DNA from: Alphaproteobacteria bacterium
Lineage (GTDB): Bacteria; Pseudomonadota; Alphaproteobacteria; Rhizobiales; GCA-2746425
Direction: 5' to 3'
Length of the DNA stretch: 64,000 nucleotides
NCBI GenBank assembly: GCA_024743215.1
Contig: JANSWZ010000001.1
Coordinates: 806,001-870,000, forward strand
Every line of letters starts with the position of its first letter. Within the stretch, counting starts at the first letter, position 1. The position numbers were made by a program, and so were the translations under genes. Shown one piece after another: positions 12,601-60,501 of the stretch. A model generated the notes under the pieces. The model ran no database searches. It saw only the letters and a list, made by a program, of their open reading frames with translations, and was not told the origin of the DNA.

Positions 12601-14958
12601 CACACCAGCACTTATATAGGAGAATGGGTCGCTCTTTATGGATATGATAGCGGTTACCTGTTGGACTCAACAGGAGGTTCGGAGAGTATGAGTTTCTCAT
12701 ACTGGCGTGACGGATCGAACGAACGCGTGCCTTTGAGCCTAAACTTCAAGGATAACATAGAAAGCGCGACGCCTGCGTCTTCAGCGCCGATCATCGCGGT
12801 TCATCATGGTAGAGAAATACACTTTCTAAACTTAGAAAAATTAAGCAGCGGCCCATTCCATAGCTACAAACTGCCGAATGATGGCATTGGGAGCGTTGGC
12901 TGGAGCTTATCCGGTCGCCATTTCCTGATGCATCATGAAAGCGCGAGTGCCTTCATCGTCATAGAACCACTCAGCAACACCGCATTTTCACTGGTTTATG
13001 ATTTCCCGGATAGTCGCTCACGAGTTCAGATGATTGATCATCCAGAAGCGGACGAGCTTTTCATTTCTGCAGATAACCTACTGTTCGGATACACAGCAAC
13101 GCCGGAGTCCAAAAAACTAGCGCCCGGCGATGTATTGGAGGGCATGGTTGTCTCCCCGATTCATGAAAAGCAACAAATCGAAGGTGCGCTTTTGAATGGT
13201 TGGTTTTTGAATGCACACACGGTGAAATCAGTAAATCAACAAACGGCTCAATCAATTTGTAAAGGAGGTCTGTCCACCAACGGTATCGAAGCATACACTA
13301 ACGCTGATGCTCGCTTCTTTGACACTTTTTATTTGTATCAAACAGATGAACTGCCGTTGCATTTGGTTCTAGCGAGAGGCGGATGCGAAGATCTCACACT
13401 CATTGCGCTTGATGCTGCAAGTGGCTTCGATGTAAGTTCGGACTCGACCATCAGCGCCGTATTTCTCAATCGGAGCGAAGATCAAATGCTGCTTCAAATT
13501 GAGCATTTGGCTGATGGTTCTGACACCGACGAAAAAGTGATGGCTACCCTTGTCTGGTATGATCTGAACAACAGGCGAGTCTTAGCATCAGTTCCTATTG
13601 GGACACATAAATTCTCTATTTCTCGATTGGTGACAGACGACAATTTCGATCTGATAGCGATCTATGAAAATCCATATAATTCCAGCATAAATGTGATAAG
13701 CCGCAACATCGTGGTTTGGGATCAAAAAAATAACAAAAGACATGACATTGAAACACCAAGCGTTTCTGAATTGGAGGATGTGTTTGTCGATAGCGCAAGT
13801 GGTGAGGTGTTCGCAACTGACCTCGGTGGCATGCTTTATGGTTGGAAAAGAGCAAGCAAGTTTGCTGTAACATCCTCGATGGAAAACATTGGTCTTAGAA
13901 GCGATATTATCGGTCGCAGCAAATCCGGCTGGCTGCTCATTAAATCGCTATTCGGCGAAAACAAGTGTGGATTGACCGCTGTTAAGTCTGATTTTTCAAG
14001 GCAGCACATCATCGACCGTTTTGGCTGCGGTTGGTATGCCAACGAAAAGTACGATGGCACCTATGTTTCCGGCAATGTGCTGGTGTTTCCTGAACAAGGC
14101 TTCAAATTGGATCTCAGCATATTGGATCAGCCACCGCGTGACCTCATATCTGCTTGGCGGCTTCGCAATTATTCATATGGGCACAGACAAAACTTGCGTC
14201 GTTCAATCAAGCGGCGTTCAAGTGAAACCACAGAAGATGATGTTTTCGAATGTGACCGCTTGGTTTCGTTTGCATTCGATCCACAACGTCTTTTCCAAAA
14301 GGGCATTCGATACGATTTCATTATCCCCGATCTTGCAACCAAAGCCTGTTCGGAAGCGCTCGAGGAATCTAAAAACCATCCTCGGCTTCTGTTCCAGATG
14401 GGTCGGGCATTGCAAGCATCCGCTCAAGCCATGCGTGAACAGCAACAGGACTACAGGGCGACAATTGACCAAGCCTATCGTAATTATGAGGCAGCTTGGG
14501 ATGCAGGATATCCGGTTGCTGCTTACAGCATCGCAAATTTGGTTCTGGAATACGATTTAGAAGATATGAAGAGGGACAGGGCCGTTGAGCTTTATGAAGA
14601 AGCATTCAGGATGGGGGTCAGCAATGCTGCGGTTGTGCTCGGTGAACTTTATTGGAATGGTCACATCGTAAATATGGATCGCAAACGGGCAGAGGCCTAT
14701 TGGCGCGCCGCTGCGGAACAAGGCAATCCCAACGGTCACAAGCTAATGGGTGGCCTACACATGGATTCAGATCACGCCAATTTCAGTCTAAAGAAGGCCC
14801 TGCTGCACTACGCATTGTCGGTAAAAAGATTTAGTGCGCTGGGCTTAGAGGAAAGTGCCGACGAAGTACGGGCAATACGAGCATCCCTTGCGCGAGCACT
14901 CAACCACAAAGAAGTTGCTGACATCTGGGCGCAAGTGCGAGATGCGCCTGAATTTTAG
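9601..14958 (+). CDS. TIR-nSTAND1 NTPase-TM-propeller-Sel1 repeat protein, candidate defence effector
   Basis: The 1785-residue protein opens with a TIR domain (about 1-120): FLSHSSFDEA, DLDPEFGLVGG and SKWCLAEF, where Glu78 sits at the position of the catalytic Glu of TIR NADases. An nSTAND1-type NTPase follows (about 172-600), entered by SPYPGLRAL, with Walker A GASGAGKSS at 218-226 and Walker B SIILPVDQAEEMF at 331-343. The linker ends in one transmembrane helix (about 685-708) and a coiled coil (about 720-765). Residues of about 800-1560 look like degenerate beta-propeller repeats (FSPSGNKLF, VGWSLSGRHF, VVWDQKN). The C-terminus (about 1625-1730) carries Sel1-type repeats. TIR-STAND proteins are known anti-phage sensors that deplete NAD; membrane anchoring and Sel1 repeats are less common additions. 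Function here is inference. Confidence 0.85.
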   Translation: MSQLFLSHSSFDEAKVLALRDWLADQGWNDVFLDLDPEFGLVGGQRWQDALKNAVRRCEGVIFLISPHWVESKWCLAEFLFAKSLNKPIFGVLVEATPLGDIPIEMTAEWQLVDLSRTGETETFNVRPSNANQSSTVRFNRDELRRLKSGLLNTGLDAGYFEWPPQSDPGRSPYPGLRALQQEDAGIFFGRNGQILEALDRLRGLRDSPAPRMLVVLGASGAGKSSFMRAGLLPRLKRDDRHFFVLPPVRLQGAKSENQSGLVDSLFEGFKQLGKSKSRKAIRDVLATVRPASARANEVEENNSSKIAELFCELLQAVFPSIDAARSNPPSIILPVDQAEEMFFSSSGVMAQELVYVLGELLRVNSPSIIVALTMRSDAYEKLQYDTVLGPVSHEILNLPPMPYGAYSQVIKGPIARMNAGDGDRSPVIEEQLVDELLKDIEAGGAKDALPLLAFILERLYSECGGDGELTVDHYEALGRIGGAIEAAVEGALRKAVDDARIPQNRNQQLALLRRGLIPWLAGVDPDTKESRRKVARLSDIPNKSRPLIEYLVEQRLLATDVRNTDRNQDNDSEVSNVEVTIEPAHEALLRQWGLLEGWLEEDFEALAAIEGVQRAALEWESNNHDEGWLAHSEGRLETAERFVQREDLREHLTPTQRDYLLACRAVENLRRNRELKAQRQITRRTRLGLIAASVLTLISAAIAIWGWTEFSESNRLTEDLRGREKQLDSTNKELAQQAGLAIKERQKAERALKSALEASALQVAATLGTESFNLSANLLRLFEVLPRQNGQEFKTQPDPTDISLVDEAFGHLLRLTSVRQTATRILPSSNSNAHFLTKDALILQESNRLFIYTPSMAKKTVLFEDANESFFCENFHARLFATRSQAGVHIYQFGDDLAVQRVANIDRSDINECAISRAGTVALRTYASDVWLTEGNFDQPLFELPSPNFAKKTHARILFSPSGNKLFVDSTHVQTKVFGLPVKIPNYVQVYDFDQSRITHTSTYIGEWVALYGYDSGYLLDSTGGSESMSFSYWRDGSNERVPLSLNFKDNIESATPASSAPIIAVHHGREIHFLNLEKLSSGPFHSYKLPNDGIGSVGWSLSGRHFLMHHESASAFIVIEPLSNTAFSLVYDFPDSRSRVQMIDHPEADELFISADNLLFGYTATPESKKLAPGDVLEGMVVSPIHEKQQIEGALLNGWFLNAHTVKSVNQQTAQSICKGGLSTNGIEAYTNADARFFDTFYLYQTDELPLHLVLARGGCEDLTLIALDAASGFDVSSDSTISAVFLNRSEDQMLLQIEHLADGSDTDEKVMATLVWYDLNNRRVLASVPIGTHKFSISRLVTDDNFDLIAIYENPYNSSINVISRNIVVWDQKNNKRHDIETPSVSELEDVFVDSASGEVFATDLGGMLYGWKRASKFAVTSSMENIGLRSDIIGRSKSGWLLIKSLFGENKCGLTAVKSDFSRQHIIDRFGCGWYANEKYDGTYVSGNVLVFPEQGFKLDLSILDQPPRDLISAWRLRNYSYGHRQNLRRSIKRRSSETTEDDVFECDRLVSFAFDPQRLFQKGIRYDFIIPDLATKACSEALEESKNHPRLLFQMGRALQASAQAMREQQQDYRATIDQAYRNYEAAWDAGYPVAAYSIANLVLEYDLEDMKRDRAVELYEEAFRMGVSNAAVVLGELYWNGHIVNMDRKRAEAYWRAAAEQGNPNGHKLMGGLHMDSDHANFSLKKALLHYALSVKRFSALGLEESADEVRAIRASLARALNHKEVADIWAQVRDAPEF

Positions 14959-15134: not shown

Positions 15135-16247
15135 TTATGGCAGGGCGCGAATGGTTCCGATCTCTATCGGCGCTCCAGTGTGTGCTGACTTTATGGCTGC
15201 GAATGTGAGCGCCAGACTTTGCAGATTTCCGCTGGCGCCATTGTTCGGTTCCCGGTTTTCTTCAATAGCACTCAAAAGCTCGCCCATAGTGCCGGCAAAC
15301 CCATCATTGAACCATGTTCCCACTAGCTCGGGGCGCGCTTCTCCGCGCTCTGTGGTCAGTGTCACACTCTGTGCGTTCAGATCTTTTCCCACGCTGTAAA
15401 GGCTGCCCTTTGTGCCACCGATGAAGGAACTGTCCAGCGCGCCATGTTTGACACTGCCGTCAAAGACCAGAGACGACTGCCCGCCCTCAAACTGAATCAG
15501 GGTCTGGCTCAAAAGAGGCGGCTTGGCACTTTGATCTTTGGCGCGGGCCTGCGTTGCAAATACAGTTTGCATACGGTCACCCAGAAGGCTGGACATGAAA
15601 TCGAACCAATGGACCCCAAAATCGTACAAAATCAGGTCATGGATATCGTTAAATGGTGTGCGTGCAATCCAGCTGTGATCCCAGTGCATGTGCGCATGGC
15701 TGCTTGTCACCTCACCGATGAGCCCGGTGCGAACGGCCTCACGCATATAGGCCATATGGGGTGCCCAGCGACCGTTTTGATTGACTGCTAGCCGCACACC
15801 ATTTTCGCGCGCCAATTTTATCATTGTTTCGCCTGCATCGAGGTCCGTAACAAATGGCTTTTGCGATAGCACATGCTTGCCTGCCGCCAGCGCTTTCTCG
15901 ATCATACCAAAGCGCACATCCGGGTGTGGCGTGATGTCAAAGACGGCAATGGATGTGTCATTGAGCAAGTCGTCATAGTTGTCTGTCGCGACTGCATTGG
16001 GGAAAAATTCGGCGCGCAAAGCCTCTGCTTTTGTGAGCGTGCGGTTGCATATGGCAGCAATATCAAAGCCTGCTTTGCGGTAGGCATCCAGATGCGCGGA
16101 CGCAATCCCGCCTGCGCCAATAAGCGCAATGCGCGGCCGATAGGATTGAGGCATGGGCGGTGTGTAATTTAAAGTCGGCGCGTCGATAATTGGCAGGTCG
16201 TAAGTGCGCAACGCATAGGTATCAGCATCCGGTGTTTCGCCACTCAT
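15135..16247 (-). CDS. Gfo/Idh/MocA family oxidoreductase (moc-like cluster)
   Basis: From the ATG at 16247 the product is 370 residues. The longer ORF start is rejected because 16244-16247 is an ATGA overlap with the upstream Gfo/Idh gene. After about 30 residues the Rossmann motif IALIGAGGIASAHLDAYRKA appears, followed by the family signature around QKPF (normally EKP; here Gln replaces Glu). The C-terminal beta-sheet domain includes HMHWDHSWIARTPFNDIHDLILYDFGVH, with the usual D-x-x-x-H active-site area. Such enzymes oxidise or epimerise sugars or inositols with NAD(P). It is the last gene of the operon running down from mocD. Confidence 0.9.
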   Translation of the reverse strand: MSGETPDADTYALRTYDLPIIDAPTLNYTPPMPQSYRPRIALIGAGGIASAHLDAYRKAGFDIAAICNRTLTKAEALRAEFFPNAVATDNYDDLLNDTSIAVFDITPHPDVRFGMIEKALAAGKHVLSQKPFVTDLDAGETMIKLARENGVRLAVNQNGRWAPHMAYMREAVRTGLIGEVTSSHAHMHWDHSWIARTPFNDIHDLILYDFGVHWFDFMSSLLGDRMQTVFATQARAKDQSAKPPLLSQTLIQFEGGQSSLVFDGSVKHGALDSSFIGGTKGSLYSVGKDLNAQSVTLTTERGEARPELVGTWFNDGFAGTMGELLSAIEENREPNNGASGNLQSLALTFAAIKSAHTGAPIEIGTIRALP

Positions 16248-17320
16248 GACACAAGCGCCAAAGTTTTTTTCTGCTGGGCGGACAGGTAGGCAGTGTCCAC
16301 GATGCGTTGCGCTGTGAGGCACAGATCTGGCGACAGTGGCCCTTCAATGGGGCGGTTATTTTCTATGCAGTTCAAAATGTATTCGATGGGATTGGTGTGT
16401 CCGGGCGCAAGCACATCGACCGGAACTTTCTTCTGGTCCGGTTCGGCGGCAGTCTGCACCGTAACAAAATCATCATAATCATAGCTGGAGATTGTGCCGC
16501 CGGTGCCAACAACAACAAAGCCGCATTGCGGTTGTGGCTGCGTTACCCATGGATCGGTAAACGTGCCCCAGCGTGTTTCCATCTTCGAAAGGCCCTGTTC
16601 ATAACGGCAGATGGTAATGGAATGTTGGTCGACTTCGATACCGGCTGTCTGGTCCACCACACAGGTCACCTCCAGCGGCGCACGTCCGTCCATGAACCAT
16701 GTGCCAAGCGTGGCACCATAACCAAGATAATCCAGCAGGCTGCCTCCCCCGGACGCTTTCCTGTACCACCATGATTCAGGTTTTTGTTGCTCAACCTGCT
16801 CTGCCGAGACCTCTACCTTGTCGGCCAAATGATAGAGCGGCCCGCGGTTGCCACCATAGTGATGAACTTCAATCAATTCGCCAATAACGCCATCTTCGAT
16901 CAACCGCTTGCAGGTGTTGTGGCTGGGGTACCATGCCAATGGCCAATTGATCGCCATCAGTTTTCCAGTCTGGGCCATTGCCGCCATCATGCGCTTCGCG
17001 TCTGCTGTGGAAGCAGCAAATGGCTTTTCCACATGGATGTGAACATTATGCTTAGCCAGAGCTACGACATGATCTGCGTGTTCGGCGGTGGCCGCACACA
17101 TGATTGCCAAATCCGGTTTCGTTTGCACTACGCACGCGTCGAGATCCGTGAATACAGCATCTTCGGGAATGTCAAAATCCGCGATGGCCTGTGCCATCTT
17201 ATCCCGAGATTTATCGTAGATTCCAACAATTTCAGCCTTTGGATGCTCATGCACCAACCGCAACAGATCGCCCATATGCATGTGATCAAAATTAATGCCG
17301 GTTACCCGAAACTTGCTCAT
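16244..17320 (-). CDS. Gfo/Idh/MocA family oxidoreductase
   Basis: The 358-residue product belongs to the same superfamily as its downstream neighbour but is clearly a different subfamily. The N-terminus MSKFRVTGINFDHMHMGDLL lacks the standard GxGxxG, instead reading GINFDHMHMGD, as in some MocA-like subfamilies. The signature HVEKPFAAS is intact at about residues 94-102. A C-terminal domain with SGGGSLLDYLGYG follows. It probably acts on the same polyol pathway as the MocD/MocE pair. It lies 36 bp after the PanB-like gene in the same operon. Confidence 0.9.
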   Translation of the reverse strand: MSKFRVTGINFDHMHMGDLLRLVHEHPKAEIVGIYDKSRDKMAQAIADFDIPEDAVFTDLDACVVQTKPDLAIMCAATAEHADHVVALAKHNVHIHVEKPFAASTADAKRMMAAMAQTGKLMAINWPLAWYPSHNTCKRLIEDGVIGELIEVHHYGGNRGPLYHLADKVEVSAEQVEQQKPESWWYRKASGGGSLLDYLGYGATLGTWFMDGRAPLEVTCVVDQTAGIEVDQHSITICRYEQGLSKMETRWGTFTDPWVTQPQPQCGFVVVGTGGTISSYDYDDFVTVQTAAEPDQKKVPVDVLAPGHTNPIEYILNCIENNRPIEGPLSPDLCLTAQRIVDTAYLSAQQKKTLALVS

Positions 17321-17356
17321 AGAACCCTCCCCCTTTTTTGCCGATTTTTCTCGACC

Positions 17357-18157
17357 TTATTTCGTTTCAAGCGTCTCTAAAATCGCTTTTTGCGCATCAT
17401 GATCAAGTGGAACCAATTCATCCGCGACAGGAAATGCACCTGAAGCCACATCTGACGCGTAGTCTTGAAAGGCCTTTATGCGCATGGCTTGCAGCTTCTG
17501 ATATTCCGATTGCAGATCGGCATATCGCCTTGCATGGCGTGGATAATGCCCGTCATGGGCGCCCAGTACATCGCACGCGAACAGATATTGCGCGTCGCAT
17601 CCCATGCCCGCACCCATCGAAATCATCAACATCGCAGTTTGCGCTGAGATGGCTTTGGCGACGGCGGCCGGCACGACTTCGATCTCGGCAGCAAAAGCGC
17701 CTGCTTCTTCCAGCGCCTTTGTCTCCTCAAGGATCCAAAGGGCACTTTCCGGTGTTTTGCCCACGGCTTTGAACCCACCAGTCCATGTTCGGCGCGACGG
17801 GATGAGACCAACATGACCGACAACCGGAATTCCCTCATCTCGCAGCCGCCGGACAATGGGAAGACTGGCCCCGCAATAGACGGCATTTGCCCCCGCATTC
17901 AGCAGCTTGAAGGCAATGCGCAAATAGTCTTCTTCAGTCACAAACAGACCGGGCTCCAGGCCCCCCACAACAAATGGGCTGGGGCAAATCCGCCTGAATT
18001 CTGGCAGGAGTAAAAGCTCTGGCGGAACCGACAGCATGTCGATGCCTGCGGCGCTAGCCGCCGCTGCGTCGTCCAATGTCTCCACGCGCAATTTCGTCAG
18101 TTGCCGAACGCCCTTCAACGCTAACAGTTCAGCAACACTCAGGGGATCATTGGCCAT
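17357..18157 (-). CDS. PanB-like (ketopantoate hydroxymethyltransferase family) protein, apparently without metal ligands
   Basis: The 266-residue product aligns by eye with PanB: GHVGLIPSRRTWTGGFKAVG corresponds to GHLGLTPQ...GGYKVQGR, and ISMGAGMGCDAQYLF to the IGIGAGN..DGQ stretch. PanB transfers a one-carbon unit from methylene-tetrahydrofolate to a 2-oxoacid. However, where PanB has VGDSLG, DLPF and the K-x-E of VKIEGG, this protein reads SVPPEL, GGLEPG and VYCGAS, so the Mg2+-binding Asp/Glu residues appear absent. The catalytic Glu region (EIEVVP) is kept. It is probably a paralogue with another role, such as lyase or one-carbon handling next to the MocD/MocE oxygenase, rather than pantothenate synthesis. 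Confidence 0.75.
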   Translation of the reverse strand: MANDPLSVAELLALKGVRQLTKLRVETLDDAAAASAAGIDMLSVPPELLLLPEFRRICPSPFVVGGLEPGLFVTEEDYLRIAFKLLNAGANAVYCGASLPIVRRLRDEGIPVVGHVGLIPSRRTWTGGFKAVGKTPESALWILEETKALEEAGAFAAEIEVVPAAVAKAISAQTAMLMISMGAGMGCDAQYLFACDVLGAHDGHYPRHARRYADLQSEYQKLQAMRIKAFQDYASDVASGAFPVADELVPLDHDAQKAILETLETK

Positions 18158-18219
18158 ATTTACTCCTCCAGATTATGGCAGAAAGGCACGTCAGACAGCG
18201 ATCTGTCCGCATCTCGGTA

Positions 18220-18534
18220 TCAATCCAGTTTGAAAAACAAACGTCCGCCCCGAATGTCTGTCTCATAAGTTTTCAGATTGACGCAAACCGGCGCGCCCTT
18301 TGCTTCACCTGTGGTGAAATCAAAACGGCCATTGTGTTTCGGGCATTCAATTATTTTGCCCATGACCAGACCATTGGCGAGCGGCACCCGCTCATGCGTA
18401 CACAGGCCATCAGTCACATAGTATTGGTCATCTTCAGTCCGGTAGAGCGCATAATACCCACCATCATGTTTGAACGTGATCGCGTCTTCCTCGTCGATAT
18501 CGTCCAGCGCGCATGCATCAATCCAATCACTCAT
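18220..18534 (-). CDS. mocE: Rieske-type [2Fe-2S] ferredoxin, MocE family
   Basis: The 104-residue soluble Rieske protein has both cluster-binding motifs: CTHERV (Cys-x-His) at about residues 45-50 and CPKHNGRF (Cys-x-x-His) at about 64-71. Its length and order fit the MocE ferredoxins of rhizopine catabolism, which feed electrons to MocD. The gene lies 18 bp downstream of the MocD-like gene on the same strand. No ferredoxin reductase (MocF) was found in the window, so the electron donor must be encoded elsewhere. Confidence 0.88.
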   Translation of the reverse strand: MSDWIDACALDDIDEEDAITFKHDGGYYALYRTEDDQYYVTDGLCTHERVPLANGLVMGKIIECPKHNGRFDFTTGEAKGAPVCVNLKTYETDIRGGRLFFKLD

Positions 18535-18552
18535 TCTTGTATTCCTTGCCCT

Positions 18553-19632
18553 CTAGCTTGAAGTTTGAAAGACCGCGCCAGGATTATGTGGCACGGGCTC
18601 TGCGCCATTGGGTAAAGTGCGGCGCACGAAAAAACCCGGCTCTTTCAACTGGCGCAGAAGTGTCGGAATTATCTCGCGATAGGCAGCGATTGAACTTGGA
18701 TAAGGTTCAGGACAATCATGCTTGATAGCCTCATGCAATTGCGGCAGTGCATGAAACGGAACCATCGGGAACATGTGATGTTCGATATGATAATTCATGT
18801 TCCAATACAAAAAGCGGAAGATCGGGTTCATATAAACAGTACGGGAATTCAATCGGTGGTCGAGTACATCCTCGGCCAATCCAGAATGCTGCGTCAAACC
18901 AAAATAAATTGCCATGAACCCGCCATAGAGGGACGGCAAACCGACCAGCATAGCCGGTAAAATTGACCCCGTGGCAATGCACACCAAGACAACACCGAGC
19001 AGAATTGCAATGTATAGACGAGCGATCCAATAGACTTTGGATCGCTCGCTCTCCGGCACAAATGTCGCTTCATTTGGTGTAAGTTTCCCACCTGCGTGCA
19101 GGAACAGTGCTTTTATGGTTTTCCATGTGCTGACAAGGGCGAAGATATTCAACAGCATCGCCTTGATATCAGGCGGTCGCGGCGTTGCGATCTCCGGATC
19201 ACGCCCGACAATGATGGTATCGGTATGGTGGCGTGTATGACTCCAGAGCCAGATGGTGGGTTCACGCAAAATCAAAAAGCTGGAAAAATAGTACAGCGCG
19301 CTGTTCATCCAACGGGTTTTAAACGCGGTTCCATGGCCGGATTCATGCCAGCGACTGTCTGACGAGGAACCGTAAAGAACGCCATAGACCAGAAAAAACG
19401 GAACGCACCACCACGTGCCCCAGAAATAGGCGCCGCCTGCGCCAGAGACCAGCAAAAGCCCGAGCCAAATCAAAGTGTCTCGAATGGCTGGAGAATCCGA
19501 TCGCCGCATGAGGCGTTTGATTTCCTTGCGATCAATATCCACTGAATACCAATCGGCAGCCACTAGGCCGTTTTGCTCGGCGAGTTCTGAATCGCGGCCC
19601 ACAAGGCTGTAGTCGCGTGCTGTTGGTGTCAT
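18553..19632 (-). CDS. mocD: MocD-type membrane di-iron oxygenase (fatty acid desaturase family)
   Basis: The 359-residue protein has the three histidine boxes of membrane di-iron enzymes: HESGH (about residue 95), HTRHH (about residue 132) and HIEHH (about residue 287), spaced by hydrophobic helices such as LIWLGLLLVSGAGGAYFW. The pairing with a MocE ferredoxin identifies it as MocD, described in Sinorhizobium and Rhizobium as part of the oxygenase that demethylates the rhizopine 3-O-methyl-scyllo-inosamine. Oxidative O-demethylation would release formaldehyde. It heads the minus-strand operon and faces a LacI regulator. The substrate here could be another O-methylated polyol. Confidence 0.86.
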   Translation of the reverse strand: MTPTARDYSLVGRDSELAEQNGLVAADWYSVDIDRKEIKRLMRRSDSPAIRDTLIWLGLLLVSGAGGAYFWGTWWCVPFFLVYGVLYGSSSDSRWHESGHGTAFKTRWMNSALYYFSSFLILREPTIWLWSHTRHHTDTIIVGRDPEIATPRPPDIKAMLLNIFALVSTWKTIKALFLHAGGKLTPNEATFVPESERSKVYWIARLYIAILLGVVLVCIATGSILPAMLVGLPSLYGGFMAIYFGLTQHSGLAEDVLDHRLNSRTVYMNPIFRFLYWNMNYHIEHHMFPMVPFHALPQLHEAIKHDCPEPYPSSIAAYREIIPTLLRQLKEPGFFVRRTLPNGAEPVPHNPGAVFQTSS

Positions 19633-19655: not shown

Positions 19656-19755
19656 TACCTTGTGATCATGGTCCGTTCAGAAAACGCCTTGGTCAAGCAA
19701 TTTTCGTACGCAATTCCCTTAAAACAGTCGCTTTTTGACAATTTTTCTTGATAAC

Positions 19756-19770
19756 ACCTCAAAATGAGGT
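19756..19770. promoter_or_regulatory. Candidate operator ACCTC-AAAAT-GAGGT
   Basis: A perfect inverted repeat with 5-bp arms lies 25 bp upstream of the preferred LacI start codon. Together with the repeat near 19643 it could allow LacI autoregulation and control of mocD. Confidence 0.4.
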
Positions 19771-19795
19771 CTTATTGCGTGTCATGAAGGATAAA

Positions 19796-20827
19796 ATGTT
19801 GACAAAACCCGGCACAACCAAAGTCACAGTGTCAGAGATCGCCAAACGCGCCGGTGTGTCAAAAGCCACTGTGGACCGGGTGCTCAACAGCCGGGATGGC
19901 GTGCAGATACACACAAGGCAGCACGTCTTGTCTATTGTGCGCCATTTGAAGGGCGACGTGTCAAAAGCTCCGACAGGTCTTCTTGAAACGATAGAACTCG
20001 ACTTTGTTATCCCTGATTATCGCAACGCATTTTTGGCCGAACAGGCACATCATATAGAAAGCTATTGTCGGTCAATTGACGGTGTGGCCTCGACCATTCA
20101 CCACCTCAACAGCGCCAATGAAGAGGCTGTTCTGCAAGCGATAGGCGAGATAAGCGACGCGTCTGACGGCGTAGGCATAATTGGTGTGGACACGGCCAAG
20201 GTGCGCCATGCGCTTCGCGGTCTCAACACACGCAATATTCCAGTTGTCACACTTGCCTCCGATATCCGTCAGATTAATCGGCGCGCCTATATCGGCATAG
20301 ACAATTACGCAGCCGGCCGCCTTGCGGGCTATTTGATGGGTAAGCTTATCGCCGCACCAAGCGCCAAAACGGCTATCATCTTGGGGCTACGTGCATATCT
20401 GGGGCATGAGGAACGTGAGATGGGTTTCAGAAGCGTTCTGCGTGAACAATGCCCGCACCTCAAAATTGTAGCAGAACATGAAGTCGCTGAAGACAATATC
20501 TGCGCGCGGGACACGCTGCTTGATCTACTCAAAGTCCAACCTGATCTCAATGGCATCTATTGCATTGGGTCAGGACAAACCGGCATCATCGATGCTCTGA
20601 ATATCACAGGTAAGGCGCAGAGTGTGACCGTCATAGGTCATGGCCTGACCGACGACACGCGGCAATATCTCATTGATGGCGCCATGGATGCGATCATCAA
20701 CGAAAACGCCAAGGACGAGGCTCGCGGCGCTGTTGATCATTTGGTTGCGGCTGCACGTGGCCTTGCGCAACCGGAACTGAATCCCATCGCCATTCAAGCG
20801 ATTTTCCCGGAAAACATACCACTATGA
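19796..20827 (+). CDS. LacI family transcriptional regulator
   Basis: Starting at the ATG at 19796, which has AAGGA just before it, the protein has 343 residues. The ORF track's earlier TTG at 19748 is less likely because it would place coding sequence over an inverted repeat. The N-terminal HTH VTVSEIAKRAGVSKATVDRV is the LacI signature, with VDRVLN forming the hinge start. The rest is a periplasmic-binding-protein-like sensor domain (DLDFVIPDYRN type through HGLTDDTRQYLIDGAMDAII) close to ribose/inositol-type LacI sensors. Its stop overlaps the next gene by ATGA. It likely represses the divergent mocD operon and perhaps the downstream importer. Confidence 0.93.
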   Translation: MLTKPGTTKVTVSEIAKRAGVSKATVDRVLNSRDGVQIHTRQHVLSIVRHLKGDVSKAPTGLLETIELDFVIPDYRNAFLAEQAHHIESYCRSIDGVASTIHHLNSANEEAVLQAIGEISDASDGVGIIGVDTAKVRHALRGLNTRNIPVVTLASDIRQINRRAYIGIDNYAAGRLAGYLMGKLIAAPSAKTAIILGLRAYLGHEEREMGFRSVLREQCPHLKIVAEHEVAEDNICARDTLLDLLKVQPDLNGIYCIGSGQTGIIDALNITGKAQSVTVIGHGLTDDTRQYLIDGAMDAIINENAKDEARGAVDHLVAAARGLAQPELNPIAIQAIFPENIPL

Positions 20828-21948
20828 CAAAGACCAATTGCACTGATCACATCAGCAATGAAGCAATGACAGACGCGCACGTATCTTTTGACTTTGACCG
20901 TCAAGGCGGCATGATCAGAAATTTCACGATAACGTCCCAGACGAACACAGAGATAAAGCCGCTGCACACGGCGCCATGGGCGTTGGACCCGGTTGAGGTT
21001 TTTGACGATATCTCTTTGGTCGAACAAAAGCTTTCAGGCGATTTTTTCTGCGCGCCATTCGGTGGCGGTGGTGACACCCCGATCCACGGCCACACGGCTA
21101 ATGGCCATTGGAGCCCGTTGCCTCTGACCGATGATGGCGCTTCCGATGATGCAATATCCGCTGCATATCAACTGCGTGAAAAGGTGAATGGCGCTGTTGT
21201 GACAAAGCGATTTGAACTTCATCCCGGCGACCCACTGCTCTATCAAAGCCATCAGTTTCAAGGCGGCGCAGGCCATTTGCCGATTGGTCACCATGCCATG
21301 ATTTGTGTACCAGGCGGCGCAAGTTTGAGCTTCTCTGACAAACAGTTTGCAGCAACTCCTGCGCAGGCACCCGAGCCTGATGCCTCGAGAGGCACGTCCC
21401 TGCTAAAATACCCGCAGAAGACCGACGGATTTGGATTCTTGGAAAAGCAATCCGGCGAACGGGTCGACATCAGCAATTACCCCTTTGCTGAGAACCATGA
21501 GGATCTGGTCATCATGGCAGAACCCCCCTCTGCGCGGCTCGGCTGGACAGCGGCCCTGGCGCAGCGGGATGGTTTTCTGTTTTTTTCAATCAAGGACGCA
21601 ACATTTTTGCCCGAAACGTTGTTATGGATGAGCAATGGCGGGCGCAACTATGCGCCATGGCTGAGCAGGCACAGGCATGTGCTCGGCATTGAAGAAGTCT
21701 CTACCAGTTGCCACAGCAATGGCAGCCTCGCCAGCGCCGCTGAGCGGTCGCCCTATGGACTGCCTCAAGGCCTGACGCTGTCCACGGATTGTGTGGCCAC
21801 CATCAATTATGCATTTGGTGCAATTGAACCGCCAAGCGGATGGACCAAAATCAGTGATGTTCAAATCAACGCCGACCATCTCGTCTTGGAGGATGTCAGT
21901 GGCGATTCCCGGTCTGTGACATTTCATGGCGCGCATTTTGGCCTGTGA
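20824..21948 (+). CDS. Aldose-epimerase-like (galactose mutarotase fold) protein
   Basis: The 374-residue product appears to have the beta-sandwich pattern of galactose-mutarotase-like proteins. An early GGMIRNF segment is followed by FCAPFGGGGDTPIHGHTANG (about residues 75-95), where the HGHT and surrounding G/H residues resemble the DUF4432/aldose 1-epimerase active-site region. A later SNGGRNYAPWLSRHRHVLGIE contains further histidines. It would convert anomers or bind a cyclic sugar or polyol product. It is co-transcribed with the LacI gene through a 4-bp overlap. Its stop codon directly abuts, with zero gap, the stop of the convergent permease gene. Confidence 0.7.
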   Translation: MTKTNCTDHISNEAMTDAHVSFDFDRQGGMIRNFTITSQTNTEIKPLHTAPWALDPVEVFDDISLVEQKLSGDFFCAPFGGGGDTPIHGHTANGHWSPLPLTDDGASDDAISAAYQLREKVNGAVVTKRFELHPGDPLLYQSHQFQGGAGHLPIGHHAMICVPGGASLSFSDKQFAATPAQAPEPDASRGTSLLKYPQKTDGFGFLEKQSGERVDISNYPFAENHEDLVIMAEPPSARLGWTAALAQRDGFLFFSIKDATFLPETLLWMSNGGRNYAPWLSRHRHVLGIEEVSTSCHSNGSLASAAERSPYGLPQGLTLSTDCVATINYAFGAIEPPSGWTKISDVQINADHLVLEDVSGDSRSVTFHGAHFGL

Positions 21949-22929
21949 TCAGCGGTCCTGTGTGAGACGCACATAGATCGCGGTAACACCCAAAATGATG
22001 AGGCCGAAGAAGATGCGGCGCGTGCCTTCAGGTATCTGCATGACCGTAAGCATGGTTGCCAAAACTGTGAGGATCAACGCGCCGACAATGGTACCCGAAT
22101 AGCCGCCACGGCCTCCAAAAATTGATGTGCCGCCGATAACGGCAGCAGCGACCGAAGGCAAAACCCTCGGTTCAACAAGCGAAAGCGACGGTGCTTTGAT
22201 CAGTCCGAGATAAAGCAGGCCCGTAATGCCAGCGATCAAACCTGAAATAACATACAGTGTAATGAGCACTTGCCATGTGCGCACACCGGCCAAACGGGCC
22301 GCCTCTTCATTTTCGCCCACAGCATAAAGCAGCCGTCCAAAACCGGTTCGGCGCAGCCCAACAATTATGATAACCGCCAGGGGTACGAAAATGATCAGCG
22401 AATTTGGGACCCCATAACTCAACCCGGTTCCCAGCCAGGACAGGATATCGGGAACAGATGAGCCAGATGCAATGACTGTGCGTTGGTAAACGAGCAAACA
22501 ACCCGTTCCGATCAGGCCTGTCCCCAACGTCATGATCAACGGATGCACCCGAAACAGAGCAACCCCCACCCCATTGACAAGGCCAATGAGCAGCGGCGGA
22601 ACAAGCGCGACAAGAATGGCCCCTGTGGGTCCGAGCACCGTCAATTGGCTTGCAGCCACAAAAGCACTGACGGTCGCGGCCACACCAACTGACAGATCAA
22701 TTCCGCCTGTGAGCATCGTCAGGGTTTGACAGGCAGCAAGCATGGCGAGTGGAATTGCAAATTTGACGGTGTTTGCCATCCAACGCTCGTTGATGATGCC
22801 AGGCCGCATCACCTCAAGGGCTACCACAAGGCCTAACAACAGGATGATCAACGGGATAATGGGATAGTCCCGGACCAGCGTACGCAGGCCTTTCAACCAG
22901 TTATTTGATTTGCTGGATACAGCCGTCAT
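21949..22929 (-). CDS. Ribose-type ABC transporter permease 2 (moc importer)
   Basis: This 326-residue RbsC-family (CUT2) membrane protein has eight to ten hydrophobic segments and the family-typical stretches MLTGGIDLSVGVAATVSAF and AAVIGGTSIFGGRGGYSGTI. The paired permease gene overlaps its start by 4 bp. With the ATPase and periplasmic protein upstream it makes a full ribose/inositol-type importer in which the two permease subunits differ. The substrate is likely the polyol degraded by the nearby Gfo/Idh, MocD and isomerase enzymes. Confidence 0.92.
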   Translation of the reverse strand: MTAVSSKSNNWLKGLRTLVRDYPIIPLIILLLGLVVALEVMRPGIINERWMANTVKFAIPLAMLAACQTLTMLTGGIDLSVGVAATVSAFVAASQLTVLGPTGAILVALVPPLLIGLVNGVGVALFRVHPLIMTLGTGLIGTGCLLVYQRTVIASGSSVPDILSWLGTGLSYGVPNSLIIFVPLAVIIIVGLRRTGFGRLLYAVGENEEAARLAGVRTWQVLITLYVISGLIAGITGLLYLGLIKAPSLSLVEPRVLPSVAAAVIGGTSIFGGRGGYSGTIVGALILTVLATMLTVMQIPEGTRRIFFGLIILGVTAIYVRLTQDR

Positions 22930-23900
22930 CTTGTCTTCCGCCTGGCTGCCATAAATCCTCCTGCCATCACCACAACAACCATGATCGTGCCTTCAACAAT
23001 GGTTGTAATGTTGGGATCAACCGACATCAGTGTGAGGTCTGTTCGGATCAAACGAAGTATCAATACTGCAATAATGGGGCCGAGCAGACCGCCAACGCCG
23101 CCGCCCAAAGTTACGCCGCCAAGCACCACCGCTGCAACACTGGCCAACAGATATGGGCCAGGAATAGGTGCTCCAATGCCAGTGCTGGCTGTCAGCACCA
23201 AACCGCCCATCGCTGCAAACAATCCGCAAATTGCATAAGCAGCAATCTTGGTTCGGTTGACATTAACGCCAGACCGGAACGCTGCCATGTCAGATGAACC
23301 GATCGCATAAACCGACAGGCCGAAATTCGACCTGCGCAGTGGTATCCACACAATGCACAAAAACACCACCATCACGATGAAAGCTTTGGGCACCCATTGA
23401 GTCACGATTTCGGGAATAAACCCCAGCACAATCGAGCCGACAAGCATTCCCTGGACCCACTCGGCAGAACCGCCCCCGGGCGAATTCAAAATCATCAGGG
23501 CGACGCCTTCCCACACAAACAACATCGCCAGCGTCACCACAATGTCCGGGACACGCGTGATAACGATCAAGACGCCGTTTATCGCTCCCATGGTCGCGCC
23601 GACCAGCAGTACGACAGGGATCACAAGAAATGCGAATTGTTCGCTGGCGCCGTCCATCAAGACAGCCGCAGTAACGCTGGAAACCGCCATCATCGATGCA
23701 ATTGACAGATCTATACCACCTGCAATCACGACAATCGCCTGTGCCGCCGTTGCAAAAGCGAAAGGCAAAGCGGCCCGTGTCAGAGCTTCCAATCCGAATG
23801 TGCCGAAATTTGGTTGGATCACGCGGGTGAAAACCAACAATGCGATCAAGATCAGCAGCAGTCCGAAAGTCCAATAATGTTTGCGCAAAAAACGGAACAT
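22926..23900 (-). CDS. Ribose-type ABC transporter permease 1 (moc importer)
   Basis: The 324-residue product belongs to the same CUT2 permease family as its downstream partner, with VIAGGIDLSIASMMAVSSV and VLGGVTLGGGVGGLLGPII as the conserved stretches. The ATG overlaps the stop of the ATPase gene by one base and is preceded by a GGTGA-containing purine run. Two different permeases next to a single two-domain ATPase suggest a heteromeric channel. The many neighbouring polyol dehydrogenases point to an inositol-like ligand. Confidence 0.92.
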   Translation of the reverse strand: MFRFLRKHYWTFGLLLILIALLVFTRVIQPNFGTFGLEALTRAALPFAFATAAQAIVVIAGGIDLSIASMMAVSSVTAAVLMDGASEQFAFLVIPVVLLVGATMGAINGVLIVITRVPDIVVTLAMLFVWEGVALMILNSPGGGSAEWVQGMLVGSIVLGFIPEIVTQWVPKAFIVMVVFLCIVWIPLRRSNFGLSVYAIGSSDMAAFRSGVNVNRTKIAAYAICGLFAAMGGLVLTASTGIGAPIPGPYLLASVAAVVLGGVTLGGGVGGLLGPIIAVLILRLIRTDLTLMSVDPNITTIVEGTIMVVVVMAGGFMAARRKTR

Positions 23901-25420
23901 CAGGTCACCGTCCCCTGCGCTGCAGTCTGTGCGGCCTCAGGCAGAGTGTCATCAGCCGTTAATCCATAGGCTGCGCGCATCAATGTTGGTTCATCTGCTT
24001 GCTCGGCGTCCATCTGGTCCACCACCCGGCCATTGAATATGACAACAACTCGGTCACAGGCTTGTTGCACCTCAGCCAATTCTGAAGTGTAAAACAAGAC
24101 TGATGAGCCTTGTTCAGCAAGTTCGCGCAACAATGGATAAATCTGATGTTTTGTACGCACATCAATCCCGCGCGTCGGATCAAAACACAGGATCGTTTGA
24201 AAACCCATTGCTAACCAGCGAGCAATCGTCACTTTTTGCTGATTGCCACCAGACAATCGCTGCACCTCGCCCTGCGCGCGTGTATCTATCTGCAGTCGTT
24301 CAATCGCAGCGTCCACTTTTGCCTTTTCCGCTGCCATATCAATCAAGCCCCATTGTGAGGGCTTGGTGTGAAATGGAACGGCTATATTTTCACGCACAGA
24401 GCGCTGCATCAGCAATGCCTCGGCGCGGTCGCCTGGCACATAGACATGGCCTGCGGCAATTGCATCGGCCGGATGTTTGAATCGGCAAGGCGTGCCATCA
24501 ATTGAAAATCCGCCGCCGTCTGGTTGGGCCATACCAGCCAAAACTTCAAACAGTTCATCTTGCCCTTGTCCTTCAAGGGCGACTACGCCGAGCACCTCGC
24601 CAGCACGCAGATCAAATGAAACATCAGTCAGTTTTGAACCAGCAGATAATTGCGATACTTCCAGTCGCGGTTTGAGCACCTCTTTGACTGATGCGGTGGC
24701 ATAGGCTCTCTTCTTGGCTTTGATGGCATCGCCCAGCATCAACTCGACGATTTCCTCTTCGACCCCATCAGTGATGGCCAGATCGCCCACCGTTTTACCA
24801 TCACGCAGCACCATCGCACGGTCGCAAACTGCCGCAATTTCAGGAAACCGGTGGGAAATATAAATCACCGACCGATCCAACGGCTTTTGCTGTTTCACGA
24901 CATCAAGAACGCGGTCGACAAGATTGGCGGGCAGCGCGGCTGTCATCTCATCGAGCAATAAAATAGCCGGCTCGCTGGCAAGGGCGCGGGCCAAGTCAAT
25001 CACGCGCTGAACTGCTAATGGCTGATGCCGGGCCAACTCACTCAAATCCACATCAGGCACACCCAATTCATCAAGCCAATGGCGAAAAGGATCAACGGGC
25101 GTACTGCCAAGCTTCAAATTGTCCAGAATATTCAAATCGGGAATGAGGGATGGTTCCTGATAGACTGGTACGAGTCCTGCGCGGCGTGCATCCGCTGGAG
25201 AGCTGACTTTGAAACGGTTCCCACGGATGGTAATTTCCCCGTCGCTTGGACTGATAGCGCCAGTCAATATTTTTACGAGTGTGGATTTTCCCGCGCCATT
25301 TGCACCCATAAGCGCAATTACTTCACCAGGTGCGACATCGAGTGAAGCATCCTTGAGCGCAGCAACCGCACCATAGTTTTTGGCCACATTCCGAGCGCTC
25401 AAAATCGGGCTTAGCGCCAT
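23900..25420 (-). CDS. Two-domain sugar ABC transporter ATPase (RbsA/MglA type)
   Basis: The 506-residue ATPase has two fused nucleotide-binding domains. The first carries Walker A GANGAGKSTLVKIL, Walker B AILLLDEMTAAL and the H-loop YISHRFPEIA, but a degenerate signature (LARHQPLAVQRVIDLARAL). The second has the family's reduced P-loop ALEGQGQDELFEVL and a good signature LSGGNQQKVTIARWL. This asymmetry is usual in RbsA-type proteins, though LARHQPLAVQ in the first domain is unusually far from LSGGQ. GAGGGGA precedes the ATG. It follows the SBP gene across a strong stem-loop. Confidence 0.93.
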   Translation of the reverse strand: MALSPILSARNVAKNYGAVAALKDASLDVAPGEVIALMGANGAGKSTLVKILTGAISPSDGEITIRGNRFKVSSPADARRAGLVPVYQEPSLIPDLNILDNLKLGSTPVDPFRHWLDELGVPDVDLSELARHQPLAVQRVIDLARALASEPAILLLDEMTAALPANLVDRVLDVVKQQKPLDRSVIYISHRFPEIAAVCDRAMVLRDGKTVGDLAITDGVEEEIVELMLGDAIKAKKRAYATASVKEVLKPRLEVSQLSAGSKLTDVSFDLRAGEVLGVVALEGQGQDELFEVLAGMAQPDGGGFSIDGTPCRFKHPADAIAAGHVYVPGDRAEALLMQRSVRENIAVPFHTKPSQWGLIDMAAEKAKVDAAIERLQIDTRAQGEVQRLSGGNQQKVTIARWLAMGFQTILCFDPTRGIDVRTKHQIYPLLRELAEQGSSVLFYTSELAEVQQACDRVVVIFNGRVVDQMDAEQADEPTLMRAAYGLTADDTLPEAAQTAAQGTVT

Positions 25421-25450
25421 ACATCAAAGTCCCCTCAGACCGAAAAAACG

Positions 25451-25485
25451 TGCGGGTCGCTGGCGTCAAACGCCAGCGACCCGCA
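25451..25485 (-). terminator. Strong stem-loop with T-run between SBP and ATPase genes
   Basis: TGCGGGTCGCTGGCG and CGCCAGCGACCCGCA form a perfect 15-bp stem with a 5-nt loop. On the minus strand it is followed by CGTTTTTTCGG. This looks like a rho-independent terminator or attenuator that lets only part of transcription pass from the binding-protein gene into the ATPase and permease genes. Confidence 0.8.
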
Positions 25486-25497
25486 GCCGGGCGATTG

Positions 25498-26541
25498 TTA
25501 TTCGCCAGGACCTTTACAAGCGATGATCTGCTCTTTGGTGTAGTTCGTCCATTCTGGGATCATGATGGAAACGGGCCATTCCGGATCCAGCGATGGATCG
25601 GCTGCTGCTTGCAACTTTGCCTTTCCTGCATCAGTGGCATTTTCCCACAATTCAGGATCAACCAGAACCACGCGGTCAGCGGGTTTTTCACCTTCCAACA
25701 AACTGATTGCCAGCGCAACACCTGCACCACCAACAGAACCTGGGTTGGTGACAGCTGCACCGATTAGCCCATCCACGGAATTAAGCTGACCGACAAAACC
25801 GGCATTATCCGCGCCGACGATTGGCACAAGTGGCGTATCGGATTCAACGAACGCGTCGACAATGACATTATCGATGCCCGACGTCCAAACACCGTCAAAT
25901 GGAATGCCGGTCGCAATGTAATCCAGGATTTGCTGTTTTCCCTGATCCTGTTGCCAGCCGGTGAAAACTTCCAGTGCAATACTGACGTCAGGGAATTCCG
26001 CCAGCGCCTTTTTGAAGCCTTTGTCGCGGTCATCATCGGCAGATGCACCCGCAGCGCCGCGCATATAGACAACAGTCCCCTTGCCCTCGATTTGCTCGAA
26101 CAACCATTTTGCACCCAAATAGGCGTATTCTTCTTGGTTGTTCGACAGCACATAGGCGGAATCTTCATTCACCGTTTGATCAACGGCCACCACCACGATG
26201 CCACGATCGGTCGCAGCTTTCACAGCAGATTTAATGCCATCAGGGTTGGAAGGGTTGACCACAATTGCGTCTACACCAGCTTGGATGAGGTTGTTGATAT
26301 CCTCAATTTGCCCGGCTGCATCGGTATTGCGGTGCGCAATGTTGAGCGATTTCACTTTGCCGGATGCCAGCGCTTCCGCTTTCATGGCGCAAACCATCTC
26401 TTCACGCCAACCATTGCCCTGAACCGTATTGGAAATGCCAATTGTATAATCAGCTGCCATCGCAGTTGACATCAAACCAAGCGTGAAGGCACCCAAAAGT
26501 GCGCCCTTGAGTAATCTCTTGCTCATATTCATTTCTCCCAT
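25498..26541 (-). CDS. Periplasmic sugar/polyol-binding protein (MocB-like)
   Basis: The 347-codon ORF encodes a secreted type-I (RbsB-like) binding protein. The signal peptide runs MSKRLLKGALLGAFTLGLMS with cleavage likely after AMA, giving mature ADYTIGISNTVQGNGWREEM. The family's core segments are present: AGVDAIVVNPSN and VVAVDQTV. Start sites are crowded: ATG 26541 has GGAGAATCT upstream, while the third ATG (MSKR) has GGGAGAA upstream; the protein from MSKR is a typical length. Rhizopine importers use MocB of this fold. It is the first gene of the importer operon. Confidence 0.9.
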   Translation of the reverse strand: MGEMNMSKRLLKGALLGAFTLGLMSTAMAADYTIGISNTVQGNGWREEMVCAMKAEALASGKVKSLNIAHRNTDAAGQIEDINNLIQAGVDAIVVNPSNPDGIKSAVKAATDRGIVVVAVDQTVNEDSAYVLSNNQEEYAYLGAKWLFEQIEGKGTVVYMRGAAGASADDDRDKGFKKALAEFPDVSIALEVFTGWQQDQGKQQILDYIATGIPFDGVWTSGIDNVIVDAFVESDTPLVPIVGADNAGFVGQLNSVDGLIGAAVTNPGSVGGAGVALAISLLEGEKPADRVVLVDPELWENATDAGKAKLQAAADPSLDPEWPVSIMIPEWTNYTKEQIIACKGPGE

Positions 26542-26622: not shown

Positions 26623-27537
26623 TTAATGAATGTATGGCCGCAATGTATCACGAGCCAGCAAAAAGCCGCGCTTTATACCAGCGTCGTCACCTTCAAAGTC
26701 ACGATCCTCGTGCTCGATGATGACAGGACCATCATAGCCTGCCCTGTACAGGTCGGCGAAAAAGTGGCTCCAGTTCACATCACCAAGACCCGGCATACGA
26801 GGCACCTGCCACCCCATTCCACCAGACATGATGCCGCGCTCATAAAGCCCATCATGGTCAATCATTAAATCCTTGGCATGAACATGAAGCATATGTGCAC
26901 CAAATTCACGCACAAAACGACGCTGGTCTATCATTTGCCAAACCAGATGGCTTGGATCGAAATTCATGCCGACGTCGCCACCCCAAGCTTCCAGAATGCG
27001 CCGCCAGATATAGGGTGAATAGGCAATGTTATGTCCGCCTGGCCATTCATCGTGGCTGAAGATCATAGGACAGTTTTCAAATGCGATCTTCACGCCCTTG
27101 TCACGGGCATAGCTGATCATATCTGGCCAAACGGTCTGTGCACGTTTCCAGTTTTCATCAATATTGACCGATGCATCTCCGCCGCAAAACGTATTGACCA
27201 GTTGAACGCCCATCTTGGACGCCCCATCAATCACCGACTTCAAATGCGCCAACACCACGTCGCGATGCGCAGCGTCCGGGTGTAATGGGTTTGGATAGTA
27301 GCCAAGCCCGGATATGAAGATGCCCTTGCTGGATAATTCAGCAACCGTGTCAGCGCCCTGTGCAGCCGAGATATTGGCCACATCAATATGCGTTGTACCC
27401 GCATAACGTCTGACCGGCCCGTCGGCCACCGGCCAACACGCCACTTCGAGCGCCGTAAAGCCTGAAGATGCGGCCCAATCTGCCACGTCAATCAAATCCG
27501 TTTCGGGAAACGGTGCGGTCAATATTCCAAGCTGCAT
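26623..27537 (-). CDS. Sugar phosphate isomerase/epimerase, xylose-isomerase-like TIM barrel
   Basis: The ATG at 27537 (MQLGILTAPFPETDL) is preferred over the track's 27567 because AGAGGTGAC precedes it and it clears the upstream gene; the product is then 304 residues. The AP-endonuclease-2-like TIM barrel shows LVNTFCGG, KIAFENCPMIF, GMNFDPSHLVW, HVHAKD and IIEHEDRD. These are the metal-binding Glu, Asp, His and Glu positions of the family. MocC and the inosose dehydratase/isomerase IolE/IolI share this fold. It sits between a Gfo/Idh enzyme and the importer, consistent with inosose or keto-polyol turnover. Confidence 0.88.
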   Translation of the reverse strand: MQLGILTAPFPETDLIDVADWAASSGFTALEVACWPVADGPVRRYAGTTHIDVANISAAQGADTVAELSSKGIFISGLGYYPNPLHPDAAHRDVVLAHLKSVIDGASKMGVQLVNTFCGGDASVNIDENWKRAQTVWPDMISYARDKGVKIAFENCPMIFSHDEWPGGHNIAYSPYIWRRILEAWGGDVGMNFDPSHLVWQMIDQRRFVREFGAHMLHVHAKDLMIDHDGLYERGIMSGGMGWQVPRMPGLGDVNWSHFFADLYRAGYDGPVIIEHEDRDFEGDDAGIKRGFLLARDTLRPYIH

Positions 27538-27553
27538 GTCACCTCTCTTTGTT

Positions 27554-28720: not shown

Positions 28721-28755
28721 TCACGTGCTCCCTTTTGCCAATGGCATGACGATCT

Positions 28756-52108: not shown

Positions 52109-52155
52109 AGAGAAATATCCCTGATTAATTGAGTGATTAGCTCGCCCATTCGCCA

Positions 52156-55746: not shown

Positions 55747-55811
55747 GTTCGTTCACCCCACTATCCAGAGATGTATTAGGGCGCGTTGCCTTACAAAAAA
55801 CAAGTTCCGTT

Positions 55812-56711: not shown

Positions 56712-56730
56712 GGGTGACAAATCATGACCG

Positions 56731-60500: not shown

Positions 60501-60501
60501 G

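What the first reader, a model, noticed from the sequence alone, without database searches (positions are those of the whole stretch)
15135..19632. Moc-type oxygenase operon with a PanB-like protein and two Gfo/Idh enzymes
MocD and MocE form a di-iron oxygenase with Rieske ferredoxin used in rhizopine O-demethylation. Here they share an operon with a PanB-like protein and two different Gfo/Idh enzymes. Demethylation would give formaldehyde, and the PanB family handles one-carbon units, so the operon might couple demethylation to one-carbon transfer. No MocF reductase is present. I do not recall this combination as a named pathway.
Basis: partly seen in the sequence, partly recalled or inferred. 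Interest (0 to 1): 0.7.

Follow-up and report, generated by a model that had tools for sequence, protein, structure and literature searches.

The report
Demethylation operon feeding one-carbon metabolism
This bacterial operon looks like a demethylation system for methylated sugars or sugar alcohols in which a repurposed vitamin-B5-type enzyme appears to hand the released one-carbon unit to folate; the same overlooked pairing sits in many rhizobial genomes, including the classical rhizopine genes of legume symbionts.

Summary
The operon is real: on the minus strand, MocD-like membrane di-iron oxygenase, MocE Rieske ferredoxin, a PanB paralogue (here PanB*), two Gfo/Idh dehydrogenases; divergent LacI regulator and sugar ABC transporter. 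It is not unique. MocD-MocE-[MocF]-PanB* is a widespread module of Rhizobiales (S. meliloti SM_b20818-20820 plus the next gene). The missing MocF is a lineage-specific loss; the Gfo pair is clade-specific. PanB* has the PanB fold, but all 84 members lack the alpha-keto-acid/Mg ligands (D45, D84, E114, also K112) and keep H136 and E181; this genome has no true panB or panC, so it is not pantothenate synthesis. Key new evidence: in a rhizopine locus with a bona fide MocR, and in about 20 of 127 loci, purU (formyl-THF deformylase) directly follows panB*, sometimes with folD next; panB*-purU-folD also occurs without mocD, and PanB* also sits beside two other oxygenase types. Best model: oxidative O-demethylation, with PanB* moving the one-carbon unit to tetrahydrofolate, then FolD and PurU to formate. 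New variant of a known kind, directly testable in S. meliloti.

The parts
18553..19632 (-). mocD-like: membrane di-iron oxygenase of the fatty-acid-desaturase superfamily
   Evidence: PF00487 E 9.6e-39; three His boxes; 57-62% identical to MocD of rhizopine loci L172/L175/L176
18220..18534 (-). mocE: Rieske [2Fe-2S] ferredoxin
   Evidence: TIGR02377 above cut-off; the only protein of the genome above that cut-off
17357..18157 (-). panB*: PanB/KPHMT paralogue lacking the Mg/keto-acid site, keeping H115 (=H136) and E160 (=E181)
   Evidence: 60% identical to PanB* of the rhizopine locus
16244..17320 (-). Gfo/Idh/MocA-type dehydrogenase A (clade-specific addition)
   Evidence: PF01408, PF22725; nearest solved structures glucose-fructose oxidoreductase; conserved after panB* in L036-L041, L128, L146
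15135..16154 (-). Gfo/Idh/MocA-type dehydrogenase B (ORF open to 16322; likely start ATG 16154)
   Evidence: PF01408, PF22725, PF02894; nearest solved structures 1,5-anhydrofructose reductase and inositol 2-dehydrogenase
19748..20827 (+). divergent LacI-family regulator of the operon
   Evidence: PF00356 and PF13407; same divergent place in homologous loci
20824..21948 (+). protein of unknown family, 45-86% identical to the product at the same place in sister loci
   Evidence: no Pfam hit, no PDB hit
21949..25420 (-). sugar ABC transporter: two RbsC-type permeases and one RbsA-type ATPase
   Evidence: PF02653, PF00005; conserved next to the operon
25498..26541 (-). sugar-binding protein of the ABC transporter
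   Evidence: PF13407
26623..29484 (-). TIM-barrel (AP_endonuc_2), third Gfo/Idh and SDR dehydrogenase; travel with MocD/PanB* in L134 and L137, in part in L128 and L158
49176..50048 (+). purU (formyltetrahydrofolate deformylase), the genome's only full-length copy; about 30 kb from panB*, role in this pathway inferred only
   Evidence: TIGR00655 315 bits, above cut-off

Best explanation
The operon encodes oxidative demethylation of an imported methylated polyol, most likely an O-methyl inositol or O-methyl sugar, with folate-linked capture of the methyl carbon. MocD, fed electrons by MocE (from MocF in most relatives, from a reductase encoded elsewhere here), hydroxylates the O-methyl group to R-O-CH2OH, which yields formaldehyde. 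PanB* takes this one-carbon unit, from the hemiacetal or as formaldehyde, and passes it to tetrahydrofolate as methylene-THF: half of the normal PanB reaction run without the alpha-keto-acid partner. FolD oxidises it to 10-formyl-THF and PurU releases formate and THF. The Gfo/Idh pair then oxidises the demethylated polyol. Shown: gene content, conservation, loss of the keto-acid site, purU/folD linkage in relatives. Inferred: substrate, each catalytic step, and THF binding by PanB*.
For: (1) PanB* accompanies MocD in 101 of 125 counted loci. (2) It also accompanies FA_hydroxylase (PF04116) oxygenases, mostly with MocE (L142, L158, L155, L159), and a Rieske ring-hydroxylating oxygenase (L150), so it follows the oxygenase reaction, not one substrate. 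(3) purU lies directly downstream on the same strand in 20 of 127 loci, in Sinorhizobium/Ensifer, Rhizobium, Phyllobacterium and Devosia; at least 10 changes of state on the tree. (4) folD follows purU in L049, L085, L091, L095 and L176. (5) L172 is a true rhizopine locus (MocR 756 bits, cut-off 650) with mocDEF-panB*-purU; L176 adds folD. (6) L091 has panB*-purU-folD with no mocD, beside unrelated genes, so the folate link does not depend on mocD. (7) All 84 PanB* lack D45, D84 and E114 but keep H136 and E181. (8) No panB or panC in this genome; purU and folD are present. (9) Precedent: glyA-soxBDAG-purU, where demethylation yields methylene-THF (PMC3691474).
Against: In the window itself purU is 30 kb away and folD is on another contig. 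Most PanB* loci (103 of 119 with room downstream) have no adjacent purU. In Phyllobacterium a betaine-demethylase-like cluster (gbcAB type) lies nearby and could be what purU serves. THF-binding residues of PanB are not established well enough here to test their retention. Formaldehyde reacts with THF spontaneously, so an enzyme is not strictly needed. Some rhizopine records carry frameshifts (mocD in L172, panB* in L175, panB* and purU in L176). No expression or biochemical data.
Confidence: 0.55

Rival explanations
1. PanB* is a metal-independent aldolase that joins the released formaldehyde to the demethylated keto-polyol (or splits a hydroxymethyl group off it); PurU and FolD only clear formaldehyde that has reacted with THF by itself.
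For: E. coli KPHMT can use free formaldehyde and aldoses as electrophiles (PMC7610986); Gfo/Idh and TIM-barrel enzymes nearby could make keto-polyols.
Against: The Mg site that activates the enolate in KPHMT is lost in all members. Loci differ in their sugar enzymes while PanB* stays. panB*-purU-folD occurs with no sugar genes beside it in L091.
Confidence: 0.15
2. PanB* is an accessory or scavenging protein for formaldehyde or the hemiacetal (for example through the near-invariant Tyr94-Cys95) and does not use folate.
For: Y94-C95 replaces K112-I113 and is invariant in the core family; formaldehyde control is a need common to all demethylases.
Against: Distant members have T, S or F in place of C (L148, L149, L155, L158). 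Repeated purU/folD linkage points to folate.
Confidence: 0.15
3. MocDE is a C-hydroxylase or desaturase for a sugar or other compound without a methyl ether, and PanB* cleaves the hydroxylated product; no one-carbon unit is involved.
For: The substrate is unknown for all LacI/PanB*-linked clusters; MocD belongs to the fatty-acid-desaturase superfamily.
Against: The closest MocD with a known pathway is in rhizopine loci, where the substrate carries an O-methyl group, and PanB* and PurU are in that operon.
Confidence: 0.1
4. The PanB-like protein is an ordinary ketopantoate hydroxymethyltransferase of pantothenate synthesis, as automatic annotation says.
For: PF02548 hit and PanB fold.
Against: Below the curated PanB cut-offs; metal and keto-acid ligands absent; no panC in the genome.
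Confidence: 0.03

Closest known systems
Rhizopine catabolism moc operon (mocDEF, mocR, mocBA, mocC) of S. meliloti L5-30 and R. leguminosarum bv. viciae
   Same: Homologous MocD (57-62%) and MocE (59-62%); PanB* present in the same operon (60% identical); sugar-type binding protein and Gfo/Idh enzymes nearby
   Different: Window operon is under LacI, not MocR; lacks mocF and adjacent purU; has two extra Gfo/Idh genes and its own Rbs-type transporter; substrate unknown
S. meliloti 1021 SM_b20817-20820 (LacI, mocD, mocE, mocF) with the next, PanB-like gene
   Same: LacI divergent from mocD-mocE-panB* (PMC11387232)
   Different: Has mocF between mocE and panB*; no Gfo/Idh pair
PanB, ketopantoate hydroxymethyltransferase (PF02548)
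   Same: Fold, H136 and E181, family known for one-carbon transfer at the formaldehyde level
   Different: No Mg/keto-acid ligands, divergent N-terminal part, below PanB cut-offs, different gene neighbourhood
Sarcosine oxidase operons glyA-soxBDAG-purU
   Same: Logic: demethylation gives methylene-THF; purU in the operon recycles THF as formate (PMC3691474)
   Different: Flavin oxidase acting on an N-methyl group; here a di-iron/Rieske oxygenase and a PanB paralogue

Membership tests
MocDE-type oxygenase system | MocD: PF00487 membrane di-iron protein with the histidine boxes | tested here: met
MocDE-type oxygenase system | MocE family Rieske ferredoxin (TIGR02377 above cut-off) | tested here: met
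MocDE-type oxygenase system | MocF ferredoxin reductase in the operon | tested here: not met
   absent here and in L036, L038, L040, L146; present in L037, L039, L041; a 41% homologue elsewhere
Rhizopine (moc) catabolic locus | MocR regulator with mocA, mocB and mocC/iolE next to mocDEF | tested here: not met
   the operon has a LacI regulator and no adjacent MocR; its binding protein scores only 20.2 bits on the rhizopine SBP model, cut-off 420
Rhizopine (moc) catabolic locus | growth on 3-O-methyl-scyllo-inosamine | not testable with these tools
   needs culture
PanB (ketopantoate hydroxymethyltransferase) | Mg and keto-acid ligands D45, D84, K112, E114 (E. coli numbering, roles from knowledge of the family) | tested here: not met
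   D84 to G66, K112 to Y94, E114 to G96; D45 region not retained
PanB (ketopantoate hydroxymethyltransferase) | catalytic E181 and H136 | tested here: met
   E160 and H115
PanB (ketopantoate hydroxymethyltransferase) | score above the curated PanB cut-off | tested here: not met
   TIGR00222 105.9 against 207.55; NF001452 124.9 against 272
PanB (ketopantoate hydroxymethyltransferase) | pantothenate context (panC in the genome) | tested here: not met
   no PF02569 in a genome scored 100% complete; no second PF02548
Folate-coupled demethylation pathway | purU and/or folD in the operon | tested here: inconclusive
   met in about 20 of 127 homologous loci but not in the window operon; purU 30 kb away
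Folate-coupled demethylation pathway | THF-dependent one-carbon transfer by PanB* | not testable with these tools
   needs biochemistry

The most novel reading that the evidence does not exclude
PanB* is a new enzyme family: a tetrahydrofolate-dependent acceptor of the one-carbon unit released by non-heme-iron demethylases, derived from PanB by loss of the keto-acid site. It would be the missing last component of MocDEF (including rhizopine catabolism) and a general partner of at least three oxygenase types.
Probability: 0.5. Interest if true: 0.8.

Novelty: new variant of a known kind. Interest (0 to 1): 0.62.

Why it matters
Many genomes carry this gene annotated as a pantothenate enzyme; if the model holds, that annotation is wrong and a step of rhizopine and methylated-polyol catabolism has been overlooked. 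It would say where the methyl carbon of rhizopine goes, give an enzymatic way to catch demethylation formaldehyde on folate, and supply a genomic marker (mocDE-panB*) for use of O-methyl polyols such as pinitol, which is common in legumes. All of it can be tested with existing S. meliloti genetics.

Tried and rejected
Ordinary PanB: rejected by score, residues and absence of panC. Isocitrate-lyase/PEP-mutase type enzyme: the fold search puts PanB structures first (E about 1e-17) and that group far behind (about 1e-8). Finding authentic rhizopine MocD in Rhizobium pisi DSM 30132: that assembly has only the LacI/PanB*-linked copy. Pinning the substrate from solved structures of the binding protein and the two Gfo/Idh enzymes: only distant hits. 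Literature search for PanB with MocD/MocE or with Rieske demethylation found no description of the pairing; papers mention mocDEF and the LacI neighbour only (PMC3538637, PMC11387232). An operator for LacI: only one weak inverted repeat (19647-19659/19691-19703, 77%), not convincing.
Full report
OBSERVATION. The five genes exist as described on the minus strand. MocD-like 19632-18553 is a PF00487 membrane di-iron protein with the three histidine boxes. MocE 18534-18220 passes the TIGR02377 cut-off. The PanB-like protein 18157-17357 hits PF02548 but misses the curated PanB cut-offs by about half. Two Gfo/Idh enzymes follow (17320-16244; 16154-15135). A LacI regulator is divergent (19748-20827). 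An Rbs-type sugar ABC transporter (21949-26541), a TIM barrel, a third Gfo/Idh and an SDR (26623-29484) lie beyond; the last group travels with MocD/PanB* in other genomes (L134, L137, partly L128, L158). The closest named genome is Rhizobiales bacterium IMCC20636 (PanB* 91%, L036).

NOT UNIQUE. PanB* homologues are common in Rhizobiales and on rhizobial plasmids (633 plasmid records with a match, true PanB included). In most of 80 named genome loci and in others the order is LacI divergent from mocD-mocE-mocF-panB*. S. meliloti 1021 has it as SM_b20817-20820 plus the next gene (the SM_b numbers are from PMC11387232; that the PanB-like gene is SM_b20821 is my inference from order). Of 125 counted loci, 101 have MocD within 4 kb and 81 have MocD+MocE+MocF. 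The window's clade (L036-L041, L146) adds the two Gfo/Idh genes; within it mocF is present in L037, L039 and L041 and absent in the window, L036, L038, L040 and L146. A 41% identical reductase is encoded elsewhere in this genome and could serve in its place.

PANB* IS NOT PANB. AlphaFold gives a confident model (mean pLDDT 88, pTM 0.79) and the best PDB matches are all KPHMT structures. But in an alignment with E. coli PanB, D84 is G (A or S in a few), K112 is Y (rarely I, M or F), E114 is A, S, G or P in nearly all, and the D45 strand end is not retained in any of 84 PanB* sequences, while H136 and E181 are kept in all. The functional roles of these E. coli residues are from my knowledge of the family. 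The genome has neither a second PF02548 protein nor PanC, so pantothenate synthesis by this route is absent.

THE FOLATE LINK. A plasmid of S. meliloti RCAM1115 (L172) holds an authentic rhizopine locus: MocR scores 756.5 on the rhizopine_MocR equivalog model (cut-off 650), with mocA, mocB and iolE-type genes. Downstream of mocDEF are panB* and then purU. BL225C (L175) and R. leguminosarum RCAM2802 (L176) have the same order, the latter followed by folD. purU, a bona fide TIGR00655 member, directly follows panB* on the same strand in 20 of 127 loci; counting loci with at least 800 bases downstream, 16 of 119. These fall in Sinorhizobium/Ensifer, several Rhizobium groups, Phyllobacterium and Devosia; the label needs at least 10 changes on the PanB* tree (the row choice kept close pairs that differ in the label, so this number is a description, not a test). 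folD follows purU in L049, L085, L091, L095 and L176. In L091 panB*-purU-folD stands without mocD beside homogentisate genes. In a beta-proteobacterial MAG (L048) purU is divergent from panB* and no mocD was detected.

TIED TO THE OXYGENASE, NOT TO ONE SUBSTRATE. In L142, L155, L158 and L159 the oxygenase beside PanB* is of the FA_hydroxylase family PF04116, mostly with MocE; in L150 it is a Rieske ring-hydroxylating alpha subunit. The sugar enzymes vary. A partner common to three oxygenase types and to purU/folD is most simply explained if it handles the common product of oxidative demethylation, the formaldehyde-level carbon, and passes it to THF.

MECHANISM. MocD, reduced through MocE, hydroxylates the O-methyl group; the hemiacetal or formaldehyde is taken by PanB*, which makes methylene-THF; FolD and PurU turn this to formate and THF. 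PanB normally moves such a unit between methylene-THF and a keto acid held by Mg; loss of the Mg site fits loss of the keto-acid partner. Sarcosine oxidase operons with purU are a precedent for this logic (PMC3691474). Steps beyond gene content are inferred. In this genome folD is on another contig and the only full-length purU lies at 49176-50048 of the window, next to an FGGY kinase; whether it serves this operon is unknown.

SUBSTRATE. LacI, Rbs-type transporter, Gfo/Idh, TIM-barrel and SDR enzymes point to a sugar or cyclitol. O-methyl inositols or O-methyl sugars are the best guess; nothing here singles one out. R. mesoamericanum mocDEF homologues are induced by Mimosa root exudate (PMC5789663), in line with a plant compound, for relatives only.

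LIMITS. Loci were collected by similarity to PanB*, so frequencies describe that sample. Gene calls in high-GC loci are approximate. Some records have frameshifts (L172 mocD, L175 panB*, L176 panB* and purU). Phyllobacterium loci also carry gbcAB-like genes, which could explain their purU.

VERDICT. Observation confirmed. Novelty: new variant of a known kind, with a good chance that PanB* is a distinct, unrecognised enzyme family.

Noticed in passing
window 9601-14958 (+): 1785-aa protein with an N-terminal TIR domain, an nSTAND1 NTPase domain and an apparent C-terminal Sel1-like repeat region (by eye); looks like a STAND-type defence or signalling protein.
   Followed up: partly
genome G000 (whole): No panC and no true panB although completeness is scored 100; the organism probably needs pantothenate or pantoate from outside.
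   Followed up: partly
window 20824-21948 (+): 374-aa protein with no Pfam or PDB hit, conserved beside the operon and partly in other PanB* loci (L132, L173); DUF4432 (PF14486) proteins lie near other PanB* operons (L134), so it may be a divergent aldose-mutarotase-like protein.
   Followed up: partly
L149 8335-9690: An M24/creatinase-like protein sits between mocE and panB* in one genome, which may point to an N-methyl substrate (creatine-like) for that variant.
   Followed up: no
L147 (G003, same genus) 5-11 kb: A second, distant PanB* (35%) with MocE, an FA_hydroxylase-type oxygenase and a reductase nearby, in a genome that also has the window-type operon.
   Followed up: no
L034, L035, L174: In Rhizobium etli, R. 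leguminosarum and R. beringeri the module lies between cob genes and an NrtR-like gene plus nadABC on a plasmid; no link to the pathway is evident.
   Followed up: no
window 51026-60554 (-): By sequence reading, a nucleoside/purine-type ABC transporter followed by XdhC and xanthine-dehydrogenase-like genes, close to the window's purU.
   Followed up: no
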